Shown here piece by piece: positions 3,147-59,306 of a stretch of DNA of 64,000 nucleotides (positions are counted from its first letter, which is position 1; each line of letters starts with the position of its first letter). The notes under the pieces are model-generated. The model was not told where the DNA came from. It saw nothing but the letters and a program-made list of their open reading frames with translations, and did not search any database. Source of the DNA: Bacteroidaceae bacterium (GTDB lineage Bacteria > Bacteroidota > Bacteroidia > Bacteroidales > Bacteroidaceae); NCBI GenBank assembly GCA_017447625.1, contig JAFSNB010000002.1, forward strand, positions 1 to 64,000, read 5' to 3'. The translations under genes were made by a program, and so were the position numbers.

Positions 3147-3203
3147 GCGCGACGTCCCCCCGCAGGTCTCCCCTCCCTTCACGGGAGGGGTTGGGGGTGG
3201 GTC
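3147..3203. repeat. G/C palindromic repeat, CCCCTCCC type
   Basis: Between the DUF4956 and DUF2490 genes: CCCCTCCC (3170-3177), loop TTCAC, GGGAGGGG (3183-3190), then TTGGGGGTGGGT. Nearly the same 33 bases lie inside rsgA at 5798-5830. The upstream part contains CTGCGCGACG and a C run, similar to the borders of other copies. Confidence 0.75.
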
Positions 3204-8855: not shown

Positions 8856-9755
8856 TTACTTTTTCTTCACAATGCTGGTTTGAGGCCAGCGGAGGCCGGA
8901 GGCAGAGGTGAGGAAGGCTTTTGCGGTGCCGAAACGGAGGAAGAGGTCGAGGCGGACGGGGAGGTGGTTCTGGTCGTCAGTGATGTAGAAGGTGACTACC
9001 TCACGCTCTTTTTGCTTATTTCCGACATATTCCACGAAGGAGAAGACGAGGCAGTGGTAAGTGGTGTCGGTGTTCTCCATCTTAAAGTCTTTCTTACCAC
9101 GATAGATGAGGGTCTCTTCCTTCACGCGCTTGCCGTCGGCCATAGGGAAGCGGAGCTTCAAGCCGGGTTTGTAGTCGGCCGGGTCGAAGGAACGGGCCCG
9201 CATCATCATGGAAACCATATCGTAGGCGCACTCGTCGGTGGTGGTTTCTGCGGTGGTGACGATACCGTCGGTGTTCACGTAACGGTGGCGGATATTGACT
9301 TTATCGTCTGCGTAACTGTACCAGGCTTCATCGACATTGTGGCTCTTGCCTTCGAGCGCGCCCTTGCGGTAATAGAGGGGAACGAGGTCTGGGGTGATGT
9401 AGGCCTGCAGGGTGTCGCGCATCATGAAGAAGCGGTCGGTGCGCTTGCTGCCCCGAGTGAGCAGTCCGCAGCGGAAGGCGGGCTGTCCCTTGTAGCTGAC
9501 AGAGTCTATGTTCAGGGTGGCGGTGCCTGCCTTTATCCAGATGAACTTCCAGTTGAAGTAGAGACGGTACTCCAGGTTCTCGCCACTGAGGAAAGCCCTG
9601 TTCTCAAAGGAGCACTGGGCAGAGAGAGAGGGGGGGAGAAAAAGGAGGAGAAAGAAAAGAAGCCCCTCTCTGGCTCCCCCCGTGGGGGGGAGAGAAGCCG
9701 TGGGGGGGAGAACAGCTGCGCGCAGAGTCGATATAATATCTTTGAAACTCATCAT
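8856..9755 (-). CDS. DUF3108 periplasmic protein
   Basis: 299 residues; the exported part begins after SLSAQ near residue 47. The DUF3108 pattern is clear: NRAFLSGENLEYRLYFNWKFIWIKAGTATLNI, RGSKRTDRFF, RDTLQAYITPDLVPLYY and EREVVTFYITDDQNHLPVRLDL. The family is found in cell-envelope settings; its function is unknown. The signal peptide is odd: between its start and its hydrophobic core stands RAAVLPPTASLPPTGGAREGL, coded by tandem G/C palindromic repeats. A very similar insert is found in the signal peptide of the GH2 enzyme at 41295. It is the last gene of the acpP-fabF-rnc-GH3 strand run. Confidence 0.85.
   Translation of the reverse strand: MMSFKDIISTLRAAVLPPTASLPPTGGAREGLLFFLLLFLPPSLSAQCSFENRAFLSGENLEYRLYFNWKFIWIKAGTATLNIDSVSYKGQPAFRCGLLTRGSKRTDRFFMMRDTLQAYITPDLVPLYYRKGALEGKSHNVDEAWYSYADDKVNIRHRYVNTDGIVTTAETTTDECAYDMVSMMMRARSFDPADYKPGLKLRFPMADGKRVKEETLIYRGKKDFKMENTDTTYHCLVFSFVEYVGNKQKEREVVTFYITDDQNHLPVRLDLFLRFGTAKAFLTSASGLRWPQTSIVKKK
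9670..9728. repeat. G/C palindromic repeats, CTCCCCCC type, in a signal peptide
   Basis: Two adjacent copies (CTCCCCCCGTGGGGGGGAG, then GCCGTGGGGGGGAG) followed by AACAGCTGCGCGCAG on the plus strand. The same unit with the same CTGCGCGCAG border stands at 41320-41365. Confidence 0.75.
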
Positions 9756-41294: not shown

Positions 41295-43916
41295 ATGATT
41301 AAATCATTATTATCCAATCTGCGCGCAGCAGTTCTCCCCCCTACGGGGGGAGTTAGAGAGGGGCTTGTTCTTTTTCTGCTCTTTTCTTTCTTTTGTATTG
41401 TATGTTCTGCCCAACCCCTCCGCACTGACTCCGTCATTAACTTCGACTGGCGCTTCCACGCTGGCGATGTCATTGGTGGCGAACGGCCCGAGACACCAGA
41501 CGACTCATGGCGCGTGCTCTCTCTGCCCCACGATTTCCAGATAGAACAGCCTTGGGAAGTCCCCGGCGATGACGAACGGCCGGACAACAGCGACCCGGGA
41601 GCGAACCGCCGCAGCCGCCTCAGTTCACGCGGGTTCAAGGAGATGGGCATCGGATGGTATCGCAAGACCTTCACACCTCCCGCTTCGTGGCAGGGCAGAC
41701 GTATCCTCATAGACTTCGAGGGCATTATGCTCGTTGGCGATGCCTGGCTCAACGGCCAGCCCATAGGCAAGACCGATTACGGATACCTCGGCTTCGAGGC
41801 TGACATAACGAAGATGATAAAATTCGGTCAACCGAATGTGATTGCGGTGCGGGCAGACACCCGCTATGCCAACTCGTCACGTTGGTACACGGGCGGCGGC
41901 CTCTATCGCGACGTGCATCTTGTCACCACTCACCCCATGGTCTATTTCAACCGCCACCCCCTGAAGATTACCACCAATAATGGTCAATGGTCAATGGTCA
42001 ATGGTCAATCCCTCTCCCCCCAACGGGGGGAGTCGGAGAGGGGCCTCGTATCCATCCAAGCCGACGTAACCTGTCTTGGCCCGGCTCCGAAAGACCTGAC
42101 CTTCGGCATCCGTATTCTCGACCGTGAAGGGCGCGTCGTTGCGGAGAAGAATTGCTATGAGACATTCCGCGCAAACCAGCGCAGTCGCGAATACCAGCTT
42201 ACTGACATCCAGATTCCCAACGCTCATCTCTGGGATCTCGACGACCCGTATCTCTACACCGCCGAGGTGTCTGTATATAGTAAGGGTGAGGTGGCCGACT
42301 GTGTCCGGAGCACTTTCGGCGTGCGCACCATAGAATACGGCCCCGACTTCGGCTTCAAGCTGAACGGCAAGAAAGTAATCCTCAAGGGCATAGCAAACCA
42401 CCACACCCTTGGAGCGCTCGGTGCAGCCGCATATCCTCGAGCCATAGAAAAGCGTGTCAAACTGCTCAAGGACTTTGGCTTCAACCATATCCGTACCAGC
42501 CACAACCCCTATTCAGACGACCTGCTCGACCTCTGCGACAAATACGGAATCCTCGTCGTAGATGAACTATATGACAAGTGGTTAAAGCAGTTTGCCGGCG
42601 ACCGCGTCTCCTGGACAGAGCTTTGGCAACATGACGTCCCTGAGTGGATTCGTCGCGACCGCAACCACCCGTGTGTGGTTATGTGGAGTCTCGGCAATGA
42701 GCTACAGACCTATTGGGCTATTCCTTATGCAGACTGGGGCGTGACGCCTTACCGTCTGCAGAAGGCGCTGCTCCAACGCTACGACCAGACACGCCCGATC
42801 ACCGTGGCTATGCATCCGCGCGGACGCAGTCAGGAGACCGACTCCCTGCCGGCCCCGCTTGTGATGGAGACCGACATCGCCGCTTATAACTATCGTTATA
42901 TGTACTTCCCGGGCGACGGGCGCCGCTTCCCGTGGATGAAGTTCTACCAGAGCGAGGCCACCACAGCTGCCATGGGACCCAACTACTATGAGATGGACCT
43001 GAATAAAGTCATCGGTCTTGCCTACTGGGGAGCCATCGACTATCTGGGCGAGAGTCAGGGCTGGCCTGCCAAAGGGTGGGCTCAGGGTGTCTTCTATATA
43101 GACCTCTCCACGAAACCCAACGCCTATCTCGCCAAGTCTATCTTCTCCGACGAGCCCGTTGTCCACATCTGCGTCCAGGAGCAGAGTCAGGACATCGAGT
43201 GGAACGGCGTGAAGCAGAAAATCCGCCGCCTCACAGACCACTGGACCCGCACCGAAGGTGAACAACTCAGCATCACCACCTACACCAACGCCGATGAGGT
43301 GGAGCTGGTCGTCAACGGCAAGAGTCTCGGCAAGAAACAGAACGAACTTTCCAACCCGAAGGTACGCAACCAGATTCGTTGGGACAAAGTCGATTATCAC
43401 AAAGGCTACATAGAGGCCATCGCCCGCAGCGGCGGCAAAATCGTTGCCCGCCACCGCGTCGAGACCGCCGGTCCCGCAAAGAAACTCAGCCTACAACCCG
43501 ACCTCACTTCCTCAACAGACAAAGGTCAACAGTCTAAGGTCGAAGGTCAACAGTCAACTGTCAACTCCCCCCTCCGGGGGGCAGGGGGGCCGTCAATCCC
43601 AGGGGGGCCGTCAATCCCCTGGTTAGCCGACGGTCGCGACCTCCAGCACATCGTCGTCACCGCCACCGACAGCAAAGGCCGCGTTGTGCCTTCTGCCAAC
43701 ACCGACATCACCTTCTCTGTTGACGGCCCGGCTGAGATTATTGCAGTCAGCAGCGGCGACCACTACAGCGACGAGCTCACCTTCACCAACCACCGCCGCC
43801 TCTACGACGGCCGCTGCCTCGTGATCCTCCGTTCCGGCCGCACCCCGGGCAAAGTGACCCTCACCGCCACCGGCGAAGGCTTCAAACCCACCCGCTTGGT
43901 GATGACCACAAAGTAG
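41295..43916 (+). CDS. Glycoside hydrolase family 2 (beta-galactosidase-like), with three repeat-coded inserts
   Basis: 873 residues, secreted. GH2 layout: sugar-binding domain (about 45-210: SLPHDFQIEQPW, GIGWYRKTFTPP, DAWLNGQPIGKTDYGYLGF), Ig-like domain (about 250-355), TIM barrel (about 360-660), C-terminal domains. The acid/base Glu469 is in MWSLGNE and the likely nucleophile Glu554 in FYQSEATT. Three stretches are coded by dispersed repeats: RAAVLPPTGGVREGL in the signal peptide; NGQWSMVNGQ...ESERGL near 230-250; KGQQSKVEGQQSTVNSPLRG plus a doubled GGPSIP near 745-775. All lie outside core folds. The natural substrate is not clear. Confidence 0.9.
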   Translation: MIKSLLSNLRAAVLPPTGGVREGLVLFLLFSFFCIVCSAQPLRTDSVINFDWRFHAGDVIGGERPETPDDSWRVLSLPHDFQIEQPWEVPGDDERPDNSDPGANRRSRLSSRGFKEMGIGWYRKTFTPPASWQGRRILIDFEGIMLVGDAWLNGQPIGKTDYGYLGFEADITKMIKFGQPNVIAVRADTRYANSSRWYTGGGLYRDVHLVTTHPMVYFNRHPLKITTNNGQWSMVNGQSLSPQRGESERGLVSIQADVTCLGPAPKDLTFGIRILDREGRVVAEKNCYETFRANQRSREYQLTDIQIPNAHLWDLDDPYLYTAEVSVYSKGEVADCVRSTFGVRTIEYGPDFGFKLNGKKVILKGIANHHTLGALGAAAYPRAIEKRVKLLKDFGFNHIRTSHNPYSDDLLDLCDKYGILVVDELYDKWLKQFAGDRVSWTELWQHDVPEWIRRDRNHPCVVMWSLGNELQTYWAIPYADWGVTPYRLQKALLQRYDQTRPITVAMHPRGRSQETDSLPAPLVMETDIAAYNYRYMYFPGDGRRFPWMKFYQSEATTAAMGPNYYEMDLNKVIGLAYWGAIDYLGESQGWPAKGWAQGVFYIDLSTKPNAYLAKSIFSDEPVVHICVQEQSQDIEWNGVKQKIRRLTDHWTRTEGEQLSITTYTNADEVELVVNGKSLGKKQNELSNPKVRNQIRWDKVDYHKGYIEAIARSGGKIVARHRVETAGPAKKLSLQPDLTSSTDKGQQSKVEGQQSTVNSPLRGAGGPSIPGGPSIPWLADGRDLQHIVVTATDSKGRVVPSANTDITFSVDGPAEIIAVSSGDHYSDELTFTNHRRLYDGRCLVILRSGRTPGKVTLTATGEGFKPTRLVMTTK
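41334..41365. repeat. G/C palindrome, CTCCCCCC type, in the GH2 signal peptide
   Basis: CTCCCCCC (41334-41341), TAC, GGGGGGAG (41345-41352), then TTAGAGAGGGGC. The preceding CTGCGCGCAGCAG is shared with the copy in the DUF3108 gene. Confidence 0.8.
41983..42046. repeat. Period-7 tract joined to a G/C palindrome inside the GH2 gene
   Basis: Four GTCAATG units (41983-42010) are followed by CTCCCCCC (42014-42021), AAC, GGGGGGAG (42025-42032) and TCGGAGAGGGGCC, all read in frame. Confidence 0.8.
43520..43618. repeat. Period-7 tract, G/C palindrome and 18-bp tandem inside the GH2 gene
   Basis: CAAAGGT/CAACAGT-type heptamers run from 43520 to 43568. CCCCCC-TCC-GGGGGG (43567-43581) follows, then two exact 18-base copies of AGGGGGGCCGTCAATCCC (43583-43618). 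The frame is kept throughout. Confidence 0.85.
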
Positions 43917-43917
43917 C

Positions 43918-43973
43918 CTCACTCAATAACTACATAAACATTTCAGGGCAGCCCATCATTTGAGCCGCCCTGA
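43918..43973 (+). terminator. Terminator after GH2; left copy of a duplicated 56-bp sequence
   Basis: TTCAGGGC (43942-43949) pairs with GCCCTGAA (43967-43974) around a CATCATTTGAG loop. The whole 56 bases, beginning right after the stop codon, recur at 53737-53792 with two differences. 43975-44296 holds no gene: AATCCG repeats, A/T-rich sequence and a pyrimidine run. Confidence 0.75.
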
Positions 43974-44296
43974 ATAATTAACGCCATACTTTGGAAAAGA
44001 ATCCGCAAGAATCCGCAAAAATTCTTGTTTATTGTTGCATGTTGTTTTCGTTTAATCCGAAACAAATGTGAATAATATGAATAATCTAATCCATAAATTA
44101 TTATTATTCGTGGGGCAAATTATTCTGATTATTCCTATTCGTTTCAGAGCTAAATCCGTTGAATCCGTGTAATCCGTTGTTAATAGTTTAAGGAGTTTAA
44201 GTGAGGGGCTTTATTTTTTCTCTTTAAATCTCTCTTTTCTCTTTTTTCGCCTTCGCTTGGGCAATTCGTCTCTTTTATTTTCGCCATCGCCATGTT

Positions 44297-52353: not shown

Positions 52354-53735
52354 ATGGAATTAAAGACTCTGATAGCTGAATGTACAGCATACGACTTCAA
52401 GGTGATGCTTGAAGAGAAGAAACCTAAGAGCTGGCTGAAGAGCGTAAGTGCTTTTGCCAATGGCTTGGGTGGTTCCCTTTTCTTCGGCATTGATAATGAT
52501 GGGATCGTCAAAGGTCTTGATGACGTGCAGCATATTTGTGAGACTATCAGTAGCAAGATTCGCGATTACATGGATCCCCTGCCAGAGGTGGAAATGATTC
52601 CGCATGATATGGATGGCTTGCGCATCTTGCATCTCAAAGTCAATTCAGGACATTATACACCATATTACTACGTTGGTGATGGTCAGCGCATAGCCTGATG
52701 AGAGCCTTCCTGCTACGGCAGAGCAAATGGTACGCTTGGTACTGAAAGGCTCAAACAAAACATACGACTCCCTTCATACTGATTATAAAGCAGAGGACTA
52801 CTCTTTTACCATTCTGGCCAACACGTTCAAAAAGCGCACCAATCAGGAATGGGACAAGAAATACCTTTTGTCGTTTGGGCTGGTAACAGGTACAGGGAAC
52901 CTAACGAATGCTGGTGCATTGTTCGCCGATGATTGTCCTTTATGGCAATCACGTCTCTATTGTACACGATGGGATGGTAAGGAAAAGGGTGATGCCATCA
53001 ATGATGCAGAGTTTACAGGCAATGTCCTCATGTTGCTCCGTGAAGCCATGAACTTTGTGAAGTCAAACACCAAGAGAGGCTGGGAGAAATTGCCTGATGG
53101 ACGGAAGAACAAACCCGAGTATGCCGAACGAGCAGTTCTTGAAGCAATGGTAAACCATTTCATCCATCGTGACTACACCGTGATGGGTAGTGAAGTTCAT
53201 CTTGACATCTATGATGACCGTCTCACTGTAACGTCTCCTGGAGGCATGTATAATGGATTGTTGATACAGAATTTGGATATTGCTGATGTGTCTTCTGAAA
53301 GGCGCAATCCCATTCTTGCAAACGTAATGGCTCAATTGGATTATATGGAAAAGCGTGGTAGTGGACTCACACGCATCTGTAATGAGACCAAAGCCTTGGA
53401 AGGTTATAAGGACGAACTGAAACCAGTCTTCAAATCTACTCCGACCCAATTCCAGACCGTTATCTTCGCCTCCTCCGATACACAAAATGTCGGAGACCAT
53501 GTCGGAGACGAAACTCACTGAGCGTCAGCAGAAAATCCTCAATCTCATCAAAGAGTCTCCGACAATCACCGGCAAACAAATGTCGGAGACTTTGTCGGTG
53601 AGCCAACGCACCATCGAACGAGACCTTTCAGCTTTACAAAAGCTTGGCGTTCTGAAGCGTGAAGGCAAGGATAATGATGGTAAGTGGGTTGTAATCAAAG
53701 CCGATGGCACCGCAACCAAACTCCTGGTTAAGTAA
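52354..53735 (+). pseudogene. AlbA/Schlafen-type DNA-binding protein with RecG-like C-terminal part, broken in three pieces
   Basis: Three frames read as one ancestral protein of about 460 residues. Piece 1 (52354-52698) holds the AlbA_2 domain (KSWLKSVSAFANGLGGSLFFGIDNDGIVKGL). Piece 2 (to 53521) holds the ATPase-like C-terminal region (EAMVNHFIHRDYTVMGSEVHLDIYDDRLTVTSPGGM, NPILANVMAQLDYMEKRGSGLTRI). Piece 3 (53487-53735) holds a winged helix (LTERQQKILNLIKESPTITGKQMSETLSVSQRTIERDLSALQKLGVL). The first break near 52690 looks like a small deletion. The second lies in a GTCGGAGAC tandem repeat, so slippage is possible. Piece 1-2 order is normal for the family. Confidence 0.75.
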
Positions 53736-53736
53736 T

Positions 53737-53792
53737 CTCACTCAATAACTACATAAACATTTCAGGGCGGCCCATCAATTGAGCCGCCCTGA
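53737..53792 (+). terminator. Terminator; right copy of the duplicated 56-bp sequence
   Basis: Same sequence as 43918-43973 (54 of 56 bases), with stem TCAGGGCGGC/GCCGCCCTGA. It begins one base after the stop codon of the third AlbA piece, just as the other copy follows the GH2 stop. Confidence 0.75.
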
Positions 53793-53954
53793 TTATATAA
53801 TAACCAGAAGCATTATTGGCTGCTTTGTGGCATTAAAGATCAAATTATGTTGCAGGCTGTGCGTTGTTATATGAAGGATAACAACCCTTTAGGCCAAGGT
53901 GGAAAATGTGTTAGACCTTGGGACACAATCCTTTTGTAGTCGTTGCAAATTGAA

Positions 53955-54185: not shown

Positions 54186-54250
54186 TGTCAACTTGTCAAC
54201 TTGTCAACTATCAACTATCAACTGTCCACCCCCACCGGGGGCAGGGGGCA
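54186..54250. repeat. CAACTGT-type repeats joined to a G/C palindrome after gpmI
   Basis: CAACTTGT, CAACTAT and CAACTGT units (54188-54225) are followed by CCACCCCCACCGGGGGCAGG, ending at the gpmI stop codon. Confidence 0.75.
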
Positions 54251-57128: not shown

Positions 57129-59306
57129 ATGACTGAGAACGAAGAACTGCAGCCCACAATGACCCCGGAGGTCGAGGCCGCAGAAACATCAAAGGAGCAG
57201 GCTGCCCCTCAGGTAGAGGCACAGACTGCAGAGACAACCACTGAATCAACAGTTGAAACTGAGGCTCCCGCAGCCGCAGAAGAACCCGTAATCGAGGAGG
57301 CTCCCGTAGCTGAGGCAGCTCCCGCTGAACCCGCAGCAGAGGAGGCCGCTGAAGAGCCCGCAGCTGAGGCCGCACCCGCAGAAGAGCCCGCAGCTGAGGC
57401 AGCACCCGCAGAAGAGCCTGCAGCCGCAGAAGAACCCGCAGCTGAGGCCGCACCCGCAGAAGAGCCTGCAGCTGAGGCAGCACCCGCAGAAGAACCCGCA
57501 GCTGAGGCAGCTTCCGAAGAAGAACCCGCTGCAGCCGAGACGGAGGACGCTGCCGAGGACAAAGTAATTTACGAAACCAAAGAGCAAGTGCTGGAGCGTC
57601 TGGATGCAATCCGCGAAGCCGGCGACGGCGGCGACCGTCAGGAGCTCGACCTGCTGAAGCAGGTATTCTATAAATTCCACAAGGCCGACCAGCTGGCCGC
57701 CCGCAACGCCTTTATCGAGGCTGGAGGGAACGTGGAGGACTATCGTCCCGAACCGGATGTGCTGGAAGAGAACTTCAAGGCTGCGATGCAGACCATACGC
57801 GACCAGCGCGCCAAAATAGCAGAAGAGGCCGAGCACCAGAAGGAAGAGAATCTGGCACGCAAGCTCTCTATCATAGAACGCATCAAACAGCTCGCCACCT
57901 CACCCGAGGAGGCTAACAGCCATTTCGATGAGTTCAAGCAGTTGCAGGCTGAGTGGAAGGAAATCAAGGCCGTTCCGGCAGAGAAAGCCACCGAGGTGTG
58001 GAAGACCTTCCAGCTCTATGTGGAGCAATTCTACGACCAGCTGAAACTGCATATCGAAGCCCGTGAATACGACTTCCGCAAGAATCTCGAGGCCAAGACC
58101 CGCCTGATTGAGGCTGCTGAGCGTCTGGCCGACGAGACAGATATAATCACCGCTTTCAACAAACTCCAGGCTCTGCATGCCGACTACAAGGAAATCGGCC
58201 CCGTGGCCAAGGATCTGCGCGAAAGCATTTGGGAGCGTTTCAAGGCTGCCAGCACCGTGATAAACAAACGTCATCAGGAACATTTCGAGGCTATCAAAGC
58301 ACGCGAAGAGGCAAATCTCACCCGCAAGACGGAGTTGTGCGAGCAGGTGGAAGCGATTGATACCGCTGCCCTCACATCCTTCGCCCTGTGGGACGAGAAG
58401 ACCAAGGAGGTTCTGGCTCTGCAGGCCGAGTGGAAGACCATAGGCTACGCTCCGCAGAAGATGAACCAGCGTGTGTTCGACCGCTTCCGCGTGGCCTGCG
58501 ACCATTTCTTCACCGCCAAGGCTGAGTTCTTCAAGACCATCAAGGACGAGCAGTCAGAGAATCTGGAACAGAAGCGTAAGCTGGTTGAAGAGGCCGAGGC
58601 TCTGCAGGAGAGCACCGAGTGGCGCAAGACCACAGACAAGCTGATAGACCTGCAGAAGCGATGGAAGGCCATCGGCGCCGTGCCTCGCAAGTACAGCGAG
58701 CAGTTGTGGAAGCGCTTCACCGCCGCCTGTGACCATTTCTTCGAGGCCAAGCAGGCTGCAACAGCCAGCGCACGCAGCGAGGAGCAGGCCAACCTCAGCG
58801 CCAAGCGCGACATCATAGAACAACTGAAGGCTCTCGCCGAGGATGCCGCTTCTGCAACCATCGATCAGGTGCGCCAGCTCCAGCAGCAATGGAACGAGGT
58901 CGGACATGTGCCTTTCCGCGACAAGGACAAGGTGTATGCCGCCTATCGTGAGATCACCGACCAGCTCTACAAGCAGTTCGGTCAGAGCGCTGCCCGCCGC
59001 CGTCTCGAGGGATTCCAGAAGACTATCCGTCGCGCAGCAGACCAGGGCGGAAGCGCATTGGCACGCGAGAAGGAGCGTCTGCTCCGCATCTATGAGCAGC
59101 AGAAGGCCGAGATTCAGACCTACGAGACGAACCTCACCTTCCTCAGCGCCAAGAGCAAGAGCGGTAACAGCCTCGTAGCTGAACTGACCAAGAAGGTCGA
59201 GAAGCTTAAGGGCGAACTCTCTCTCCTGGCCGAGAAAATCAAGGCCGTGGATGCAGAGATGCGTGCACCGAAAGAAGAGGAGCAGCCCGCCGAGACAAAG
59301 GACTGA
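57129..59306 (+). CDS. DUF349 repeat protein with acidic Ala/Pro/Glu-rich front
   Basis: 725 residues. The first 140 are low-complexity, built from units such as EEPAAEAAPA. Five or so DUF349 domains follow (about 215-660), each a helical hairpin with the family core LQAEWKEI...VWKTFQ, LHADYKEIGP...IWERFKAA, LQAEWKTIGYAP...VFDRFRVACDHFF, LQKRWKAIGAVP...LWKRFTAACDHFF and LQQQWNEVGHVP. The C-terminus is a coiled coil (FLSAKSKSGNSLVAELTKKVEKLKGELSLLAEKI). No signal peptide; cytoplasmic. The family's function is unsettled. Confidence 0.9.
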   Translation: MTENEELQPTMTPEVEAAETSKEQAAPQVEAQTAETTTESTVETEAPAAAEEPVIEEAPVAEAAPAEPAAEEAAEEPAAEAAPAEEPAAEAAPAEEPAAAEEPAAEAAPAEEPAAEAAPAEEPAAEAASEEEPAAAETEDAAEDKVIYETKEQVLERLDAIREAGDGGDRQELDLLKQVFYKFHKADQLAARNAFIEAGGNVEDYRPEPDVLEENFKAAMQTIRDQRAKIAEEAEHQKEENLARKLSIIERIKQLATSPEEANSHFDEFKQLQAEWKEIKAVPAEKATEVWKTFQLYVEQFYDQLKLHIEAREYDFRKNLEAKTRLIEAAERLADETDIITAFNKLQALHADYKEIGPVAKDLRESIWERFKAASTVINKRHQEHFEAIKAREEANLTRKTELCEQVEAIDTAALTSFALWDEKTKEVLALQAEWKTIGYAPQKMNQRVFDRFRVACDHFFTAKAEFFKTIKDEQSENLEQKRKLVEEAEALQESTEWRKTTDKLIDLQKRWKAIGAVPRKYSEQLWKRFTAACDHFFEAKQAATASARSEEQANLSAKRDIIEQLKALAEDAASATIDQVRQLQQQWNEVGHVPFRDKDKVYAAYREITDQLYKQFGQSAARRRLEGFQKTIRRAADQGGSALAREKERLLRIYEQQKAEIQTYETNLTFLSAKSKSGNSLVAELTKKVEKLKGELSLLAEKIKAVDAEMRAPKEEEQPAETKD

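What the first reader, a model, noticed from the sequence alone, without database searches (positions are those of the whole stretch)
41295..43618. Three separate in-frame repeat insertions in one GH2 glycosidase gene
Seen: a CTCCCCCC/GGGGGGAG palindrome in the signal peptide (41334-41352), a heptamer tract plus palindrome at 41983-42046, and a heptamer tract plus palindrome plus exact 18-bp tandem at 43520-43618. All are read through without a stop and fall in the signal peptide or between domains. Inference: the repeats are mobile or self-expanding and persist in coding DNA where the protein tolerates linkers.
Basis: partly seen in the sequence, partly recalled or inferred. Interest (0 to 1): 0.75.

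Follow-up and report, generated by a model that had tools for sequence, protein, structure and literature searches.

The report
Palindromic DNA repeats inside essential genes
In this group of gut bacteria a short hairpin-forming DNA repeat has spread through the genome and sits, still in the right reading frame, inside many ordinary genes including essential ones, where it should be translated as an extra loop; the glycosidase gene in the window carries two copies plus other repeats.

Summary
In detail: GH2 gene 41295-43916 carries three separate in-frame repeat stretches, far above chance. Site 2 spans 23 residues against 3-16 in 37 genus orthologues (3-4 in 32); site 3 spans 40 against 3-53, in a linker where other species carry their own repeats. 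The site 1 and 2 palindromes are copies of a dispersed 31-nt hairpin, element A (45 exact copies in this genome, 0 reversed). Its apparent full form is an inverted pair, about 101-116 nt, like a REPIN or a Rickettsia palindromic element. Of 148 distinct copies, 127 lie in predicted genes: 109 in one frame, 18 in a second, 0 in the third. In genes, 46 of 49 pairs have spacers divisible by three. Hosts include PheT, ValS, HisS, CysS, KsgA and IspG. Heptamers are a separate class. No mobilising enzyme was identified; Y1 transposases show no association. In-frame palindromes in genes are known from Rickettsia and others; my searches of an open-licence library showed no report for this element. New variant of a known kind.

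The parts
41295..43916 (+). Host gene: GH2 family glycosidase, 873 aa
   Evidence: open frame; Pfam GH2 domains, DUF4982, GH2_C5; best solved homologue 7rsk
41334..41364 (+). Site 1: single element A, read as LPPTGGVREG in the apparent signal peptide
   Evidence: sequence; fits the element A pattern; 0 of 36 testable orthologues have a C4-G4 palindrome at the N-terminus
41979..42009 (+). Site 2: AATGGTC heptamer tract, read as NGQWSMVNGQ
   Evidence: TRF period 7, 4.4 copies, 100%
42014..42044 (+). Site 2: single element A, read as LSPQRGESERG (minor frame)
   Evidence: sequence; row WIN 42014; region 23 aa here against 3-16 aa in 37 orthologues
43512..43565 (+). Site 3: degenerate GGTCAAC-type heptamer tract
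   Evidence: TRF period 7, 70% match
43565..43590 (+). Site 3: related palindrome of another type (ends GGCAGGGGGGC), here called B
   Evidence: sequence; a similar form follows TGTCAACT repeats at 54186-54241
43582..43618 (+). Site 3: exact 18-bp tandem CAGGGGGGCCGTCAATCC
   Evidence: TRF period 18, 2.1 copies, 100%
9662..9692 (-). Element A in a DUF3108 gene (8856-9755, -), near its N-terminus, after the same LRAAVLPPT lead-in as GH2 site 1
   Evidence: row WIN 9662; Pfam DUF3108

Best explanation
The GH2 gene is one host of a genome-wide population of short repeats. Sites 1 and 2 hold single copies of element A, a 31-nt hairpin (GCCCCTCTCTAACTCCCCCCGTGGGGGGGAG or its reverse complement). 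The apparent complete unit is two such hairpins in inverted orientation around a spacer, most often 39-54 nt, about 101-116 nt in all, foldable into one long hairpin; single copies look like half elements. It works like a Rickettsia palindromic element or a REPIN: a non-autonomous repeat that spreads within the genome (agent unknown) and enters genes as well as intergenic DNA. Copies that stay in frame in loops, linkers or signal peptides are kept and translated as a flexible Pro/Gly/Ser-rich insert (PLSNSPRGGEDS...LPPTGGVGEG). Heptamer tracts are a second, independent class that collects in the same permissive linkers, probably by slippage; the 18-bp and 36-nt tandems are local duplications. 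Shown by comparison: dispersal, open-frame placement in predicted genes, codon-sized spacers, absence from orthologues examined, loops shared by several repeat families. Inferred: movement, its mechanism, translation, and selection as the filter.
For: Copy number: exact 30-nt pattern 45 times in G000, 52 in G073, 1-14 in 21 other genus genomes, 0 in 116 of 139; 0 for the reversed pattern in every row. Placement: 127 of 148 distinct copies in predicted CDS; 104 host proteins in 69 clusters. Frame: 109 major, 18 minor, 0 third, although 48 of the 127 copies are stop-free in the third frame over their own length. Pairs: 49 in CDS, 46 with spacer divisible by three; 32 of 49 have spacers of 39-54 nt, all 32 in codon steps. 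Hosts: 20 checked, best-matching models PheT, LpxB, KsgA, CysS, IspG, AroE, ValS, HisS, TruB, TruA, FeoB, AsnB, HemW, MutY, PrmC, MazG and others; 15 of 20 pass the curated cut-off of a model of that name. Absence: PheT loop compact in 20 of 29 other loci examined, element A in 1 of 29; GH2. Alignments to solved homologues break or gap at or near the inserts in ValS, HisS, AroE, KsgA and GH2. Hairpin of the PheT copy -79.4 kcal/mol, z -8.0.
Against: No transposase or autonomous partner was identified, and no excision or strain polymorphism was seen. PheT and GH2 site 2 show loop replacement rather than a pure insertion, and no target duplication was identified. In the own-genome sample only 12 of 19 copies are in predicted CDS, below the 82% for random positions (p 0.06); in the named-genome sample 108 of 119 against 84% (p 0.06). 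So enrichment in genes is not shown, only lack of strong avoidance. The gene caller calls only open frames, so a copy that breaks a gene would count as intergenic or split; I did not look for broken genes around the 21 intergenic copies. 3 of 49 CDS pairs do not fit a multiple of three. Many hosts recur at the same site in several species, so copies are not independent, and 25 of the 80 rows printed come from one assembly. 5 of 20 hosts score below the curated cut-off (LpxB, AroE, RlmB/TrmH type, dihydrolipoyl dehydrogenase, MutY). Named carriers are metagenome assemblies.
Confidence: 0.8

Rival explanations
1. Ordinary low-complexity linkers: Pro/Gly/Ser-rich interdomain segments that look repetitive only by codon bias.
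For: Sites 2 and 3 are between domains; site 3 length varies from 3 to 53 residues in 37 orthologues, and some of those linkers show no obvious repeat by eye.
Against: The same 31-nt DNA occurs in unrelated proteins, in both orientations, in two frames and between genes; 0 hits for the reversed pattern.
Confidence: 0.05
2. A classical REPIN moved by a RAYT (Y1 transposase) encoded in trans.
For: Inverted doublets with a spacer, hairpin fold, singlets beside doublets, as REPINs are described in PMC3116915 (passages seen). G067, with 13 copies, has one strong PF01797 hit; G042, G104 and G106 have weak ones.
Against: PF01797 was not found in the three genomes with most copies (G073, G000, G065), all incomplete; over 139 genomes strong hits (E<1e-15) are in 4 of 23 element-bearing genomes and 22 of 116 others, p 1.0. 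Location is mostly within predicted genes.
Confidence: 0.2
3. The insert is kept because it is useful: an RNA hairpin that tunes translation or mRNA stability, or a functional peptide.
For: Frame bias 109:18:0 with 48 copies open in the unused frame over their own length; some sites are shared by several species; very stable hairpin.
Against: The 20 hosts checked have no common function, and most other genus members examined lack the insert in PheT (28 of 29) and GH2 (37 of 37). Function was not tested.
Confidence: 0.12
4. Assembly or binning artefact of metagenome-assembled genomes.
For: The named carriers are metagenome or uncultured assemblies, and hairpins can trouble assembly.
Against: The 80 rows printed carry 20 different record prefixes by my count, from several host animals; frames stay open and spacers change in codon steps; filled and empty sites differ between species.
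Confidence: 0.03

Closest known systems
Rickettsia palindromic elements (RPE; also in Wolbachia)
   Same: 100-150 bp palindromic repeats, some within ORFs without destroying the frame; PheT is among the genes shown there too (PMC3767692, abstract and passages seen).
   Different: Other phylum; sequence relation was not searched; here the unit is built of two 31-nt C/G-rich hairpins, and half elements and tandem copies occur.
REP / REPIN (with RAYT)
   Same: Inverted doublets of short palindromes with a spacer, foldable as one hairpin (PMC3116915, abstract and passages seen).
   Different: REPINs are described in extragenic space and RAYT-linked; here 127 of 148 copies are in predicted genes and no RAYT link was found.
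Intragenic GTAG/CGTC-tagged REPs
   Same: REP units and dimers within ORFs, such as tRNA synthetases and TruB, in several species; some CGTC repeats are reported from Bacteroidetes (PMC3733652, section 15 read whole, other passages seen).
   Different: There most REPs are intergenic and end in GTAG or CGTC; the left-arm consensus here carries neither.
Small dispersed repeats beside heptamer tracts in Nostoc (recalled; the paper is not held)
   Same: Tiny repeats and heptameric tandem repeats in one genome.
   Different: Here heptamers are not enriched near element A: 1 of 19 and 2 of 119 copies, against 40 of 2000 and 21 of 1193 random places.

Membership tests
Rickettsia palindromic elements | Palindromic repeat of about 100-150 bp | tested here: met
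   32 of 49 CDS pairs have spacers of 39-54 nt plus two 31-nt arms, 101-116 nt
Rickettsia palindromic elements | In-frame within ORFs of genes that look functional | tested here: met
   127 of 148 copies in predicted CDS, two frames only; 15 of 20 hosts checked pass a curated cut-off, 5 fall below it
Rickettsia palindromic elements | Occurs in Rickettsiales | tested here: not met
   named carriers are Bacteroidota; in the family sample the exact pattern is in one genus of 30
Rickettsia palindromic elements | Sequence related to a described RPE class | not tested
   no RPE sequences were compared
REPIN | REP doublet in inverted orientation forming a hairpin | tested here: met
   16 distinct strict doublets, 51 with relaxed arms, one folded
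REPIN | Extragenic location | tested here: not met
   127 of 148 copies in predicted CDS
REPIN | Linked to a RAYT (Y1 transposase) | tested here: not met
   no PF01797 in this genome; no association over 139 genomes; genomes are incomplete, and G067 with 13 copies does have a hit
GTAG/CGTC REP superfamilies | GTAG or CGTC tetranucleotide at one end of the palindrome | tested here: not met
   left-arm consensus GCCCCTCTCTAACTCCCCCCGTGGGGGGGAG
IS-derived MITE | Termini shared with an autonomous transposon; target-site duplication | tested here: inconclusive
   only a weak flank preference and no clear duplication; no systematic search for an autonomous partner

The most novel reading that the evidence does not exclude
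A REPIN-like element adapted to live inside genes: its sequence has evolved so that one of three frames gives a harmless flexible linker, so that genes, even essential ones, are its main habitat instead of the places it avoids. It would be a self-spreading 'mobile linker' without splicing, and the hot loops of PheT, AroE and GH2 would be recurrent landing sites for several unrelated repeat families.
Probability: 0.35. Interest if true: 0.85.

Novelty: new variant of a known kind. Interest (0 to 1): 0.72.

Why it matters
In-frame palindromes in genes are best known from Rickettsia, where reduced genomes and weak selection are usually blamed (recalled). Here the same kind of thing appears in Bacteroidota, many of them named for rumen or omasum samples, in one genus, with tens of exact copies in the two richest genomes and in housekeeping genes such as ValS, PheT and HisS. 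It shows how new loops and linkers, and perhaps gene fusions, can arise from a spreading DNA repeat, and gives natural empty and filled sites to test how proteins tolerate them.

Tried and rejected
Tried without result: a first pattern with the wrong loop length gave 0 matches; the Y1 transposase idea found no association; viral contigs held no exact copy; heptamer plus palindrome as one unit was tested and dropped; comparing G113 with G106 for clean empty sites gave 42 indels of 15 nt or more, but aligned blocks at about 66-87% identity were too distant for base-exact junctions; G000, G059 and G073 contigs gave only 7-9 reciprocal gene pairs per comparison. Paper searches listed 5-15 papers each out of up to thousands that matched; nothing listed described such an element in these bacteria. 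Not done: structure prediction, strain comparison, search for RPE sequence relatives, search for genes broken by the element.

Counting notes: CDS calls come from my own simple gene finder, which sees only open frames. The 148 copies are 19 own, 119 from named loci and 10 from other genus loci; GH2 site 1 is among the 21 counted intergenic. Exact-pattern counts see near-consensus copies only. Frame counts include several copies at shared sites; by cluster 54 of 69 are major only, 11 minor only, 4 both. A looser pattern gave 22 copies in the own sample, 14 in genes. The heptamer count counts overlapping matches. Site 1 was first tested on the first 180 nt of each open frame, which missed some N-termini; one search repeats it properly.

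Full report
What is in the window. The GH2 gene at 41295-43916 codes for 873 residues with an open frame and has the usual GH2 domains. Three stretches stand out. Site 1 is a C/G palindrome in the apparent signal peptide. Site 2 is an AATGGTC heptamer tract followed by the same palindrome type. Site 3 is a degenerate heptamer tract, a related palindrome and an exact 18-bp tandem. Neither the palindrome nor the heptamer is expected by chance.

Comparison with orthologues. In the genus, 61 of 61 genomes gave some hit to the protein in a first search, and 47 of 139 a strong one, the own gene included. I aligned 37 of the 46 other strong orthologues, those with fetched loci. At site 2 the region is 23 residues here and 3-16 elsewhere, 3 or 4 in 32 of 37. 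At site 3 it is 40 here and 3-53 elsewhere, 3 or 4 in 16 of 37. None of the 36 that reach the N-terminus has a C4-G4 palindrome there, and none of the 37 holds element A at up to 6 substitutions or the element peptides. Other species carry their own repeats at site 3, for example heptamer tracts in L017, L018 and L083 and a palindrome in L080; L080 and L083 are 90% identical in DNA over the gene and differ there. In the solved homologue 7rsk the alignment breaks from 738 to 777, and site 2 faces a gap.

The palindrome is a dispersed element. The pattern TCCCCCCNNNGGGGGGA occurs 70 times in this genome and 0 times read backwards. With its tail it becomes a 31-nt element, here called A. The exact 30-nt pattern has 45 copies in this genome, 52 in G073, and 1-14 in 21 further genus genomes; 116 of 139 have none. 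In a family sample 6 of 399 genomes have it, all in this genus, none in the 29 other genera sampled. No exact copy was found in viral contigs.

The unit. Sixteen distinct strict inverted doublets have spacers of 42 to 141 nt, all divisible by three. With relaxed arms I found 51 pairs, 49 in predicted genes; 46 of those 49 have a spacer divisible by three, and 32 of 49 have one of 39-54 nt. The common product is PLSNSPRGGEDSLSSG...SGNAALPPTGGAGRG. The PheT copy folds as one hairpin of -79.4 kcal/mol against a mean of -48.6 for shuffles. Some pairs enclose host sequence instead: in ValS of three loci two half elements flank 87 nt of the gene. Tandem copies at a 36-nt period also occur (6 by a strict pattern).

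Where it sits. Of 148 distinct copies, 127 lie in predicted genes and 21 between genes, GH2 site 1 being counted among the 21. By frame: 109, 18 and 0, although 48 of the 127 are stop-free in the third over their own length. My gene caller sees only open frames, so copies that break a gene would be missed; the absence of the third frame is therefore partly built in, but not for those 48. Against random positions, the share in genes is 12 of 19 versus 82% in the own-genome sample and 108 of 119 versus 84% in the named-genome sample; neither differs clearly, p 0.06 each, in opposite directions. So the element does not strongly avoid genes, but I cannot say that it prefers them. Other C/G palindromes are in genes less often in both sets (10 of 32 and 106 of 129; p 0.04 and 0.06).

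Hosts. The 104 host proteins form 69 clusters. Twenty were checked with curated models. Fifteen pass a cut-off of that name: PheT, KsgA, CysS, IspG, ValS, HisS, TruB, TruA, FeoB, LL-diaminopimelate aminotransferase, a GltA-type glutamate synthase, AsnB, HemW, PrmC, MazG. Five have these as best match but score below the cut-off: LpxB and AroE, an RlmB/TrmH-type methyltransferase, dihydrolipoyl dehydrogenase and MutY; LpxB passes Pfam's and AroE has solved homologues at E 7.6e-36. Alignments to solved structures break or gap at or near the insert in ValS, HisS, AroE and KsgA; in ValS the unaligned stretch also holds host residues.

Hot loops. PheT was found in 128 of 139 genomes; I compared 29 other loci. 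20 have a compact loop, 6 have 6-11 extra residues, and 3 have long inserts of different kinds: element A in G073, another palindrome in G136, an inverted heptamer tract in G105 (repeat types by eye). G059, the closest by PheT, has the compact loop. In AroE none of 29 other loci compared has element A, but one has a heptamer tract and two have other palindromes, one of them a complete inverted pair of a different family in G075 (by eye). Filled sites in PheT and GH2 lack about 4-6 native residues, so the change is a loop replacement or an insertion with loss.

How it may work. The pattern fits a non-autonomous hairpin repeat that spreads in the genome, enters genes, and is kept where it stays in frame in a tolerant loop. 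The agent is unknown. Y1 transposases were not found in this genome's incomplete assembly, nor in G073 or G065, and are not associated with the element over 139 genomes: 4 of 23 against 22 of 116; G067, with 13 copies, does have one. The heptamers are a separate class: 54 overlapping matches in this genome against 2 in the reversed control, not enriched beside element A.

What is known. Rickettsia palindromic elements are 100-150 bp repeats, some found in ORFs without destroying the frame, with PheT among the genes shown (PMC3767692, abstract and passages). REP units and dimers inside ORFs are reported in several species, including tRNA synthetases and TruB, while most REPs are intergenic (PMC3733652, section 15). 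REPINs are inverted REP doublets linked to RAYTs (PMC3116915, passages). The top listings of the paper searches made here showed no report of such an element in these Bacteroidota; the library holds open-licence papers only. I file it as a new variant of a known kind.

Noticed in passing
L121 5835-7412 (-) in G000; L139 3233-4840 (+): IspG (GcpE) is joined in one open frame, through a repeat-coded linker, to a DUF559 domain in two genomes; a repeat may have made a gene fusion.
   Followed up: partly
window 8856-9755 (-) and 41295-41400: Two unrelated proteins (DUF3108 and GH2) carry the same LRAAVLPPT lead-in before element A near the N-terminus.
   Followed up: partly
L332 (AroE loop, G075): A complete inverted pair of a different palindrome family (GACCCACCCC...GGGGTGGGTC) sits in frame in AroE; the window has single copies of a similar type at 3170 and 5798.
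   Followed up: no
window 54186-54241: TGTCAACT octamer and heptamer repeats followed by a B-type palindrome, like site 3.
   Followed up: no
window 43911-43981 and 53730-53800: A 71-nt direct repeat, 90% identical, begins at the end of the GH2 gene and recurs 9.8 kb on; by eye it holds an inverted repeat and may be a duplicated terminator.
   Followed up: no
window 57303-57529: Long tandem repeat with units of 30, 48, 60 and 78 nt, within ORF 57129-59306.
   Followed up: no
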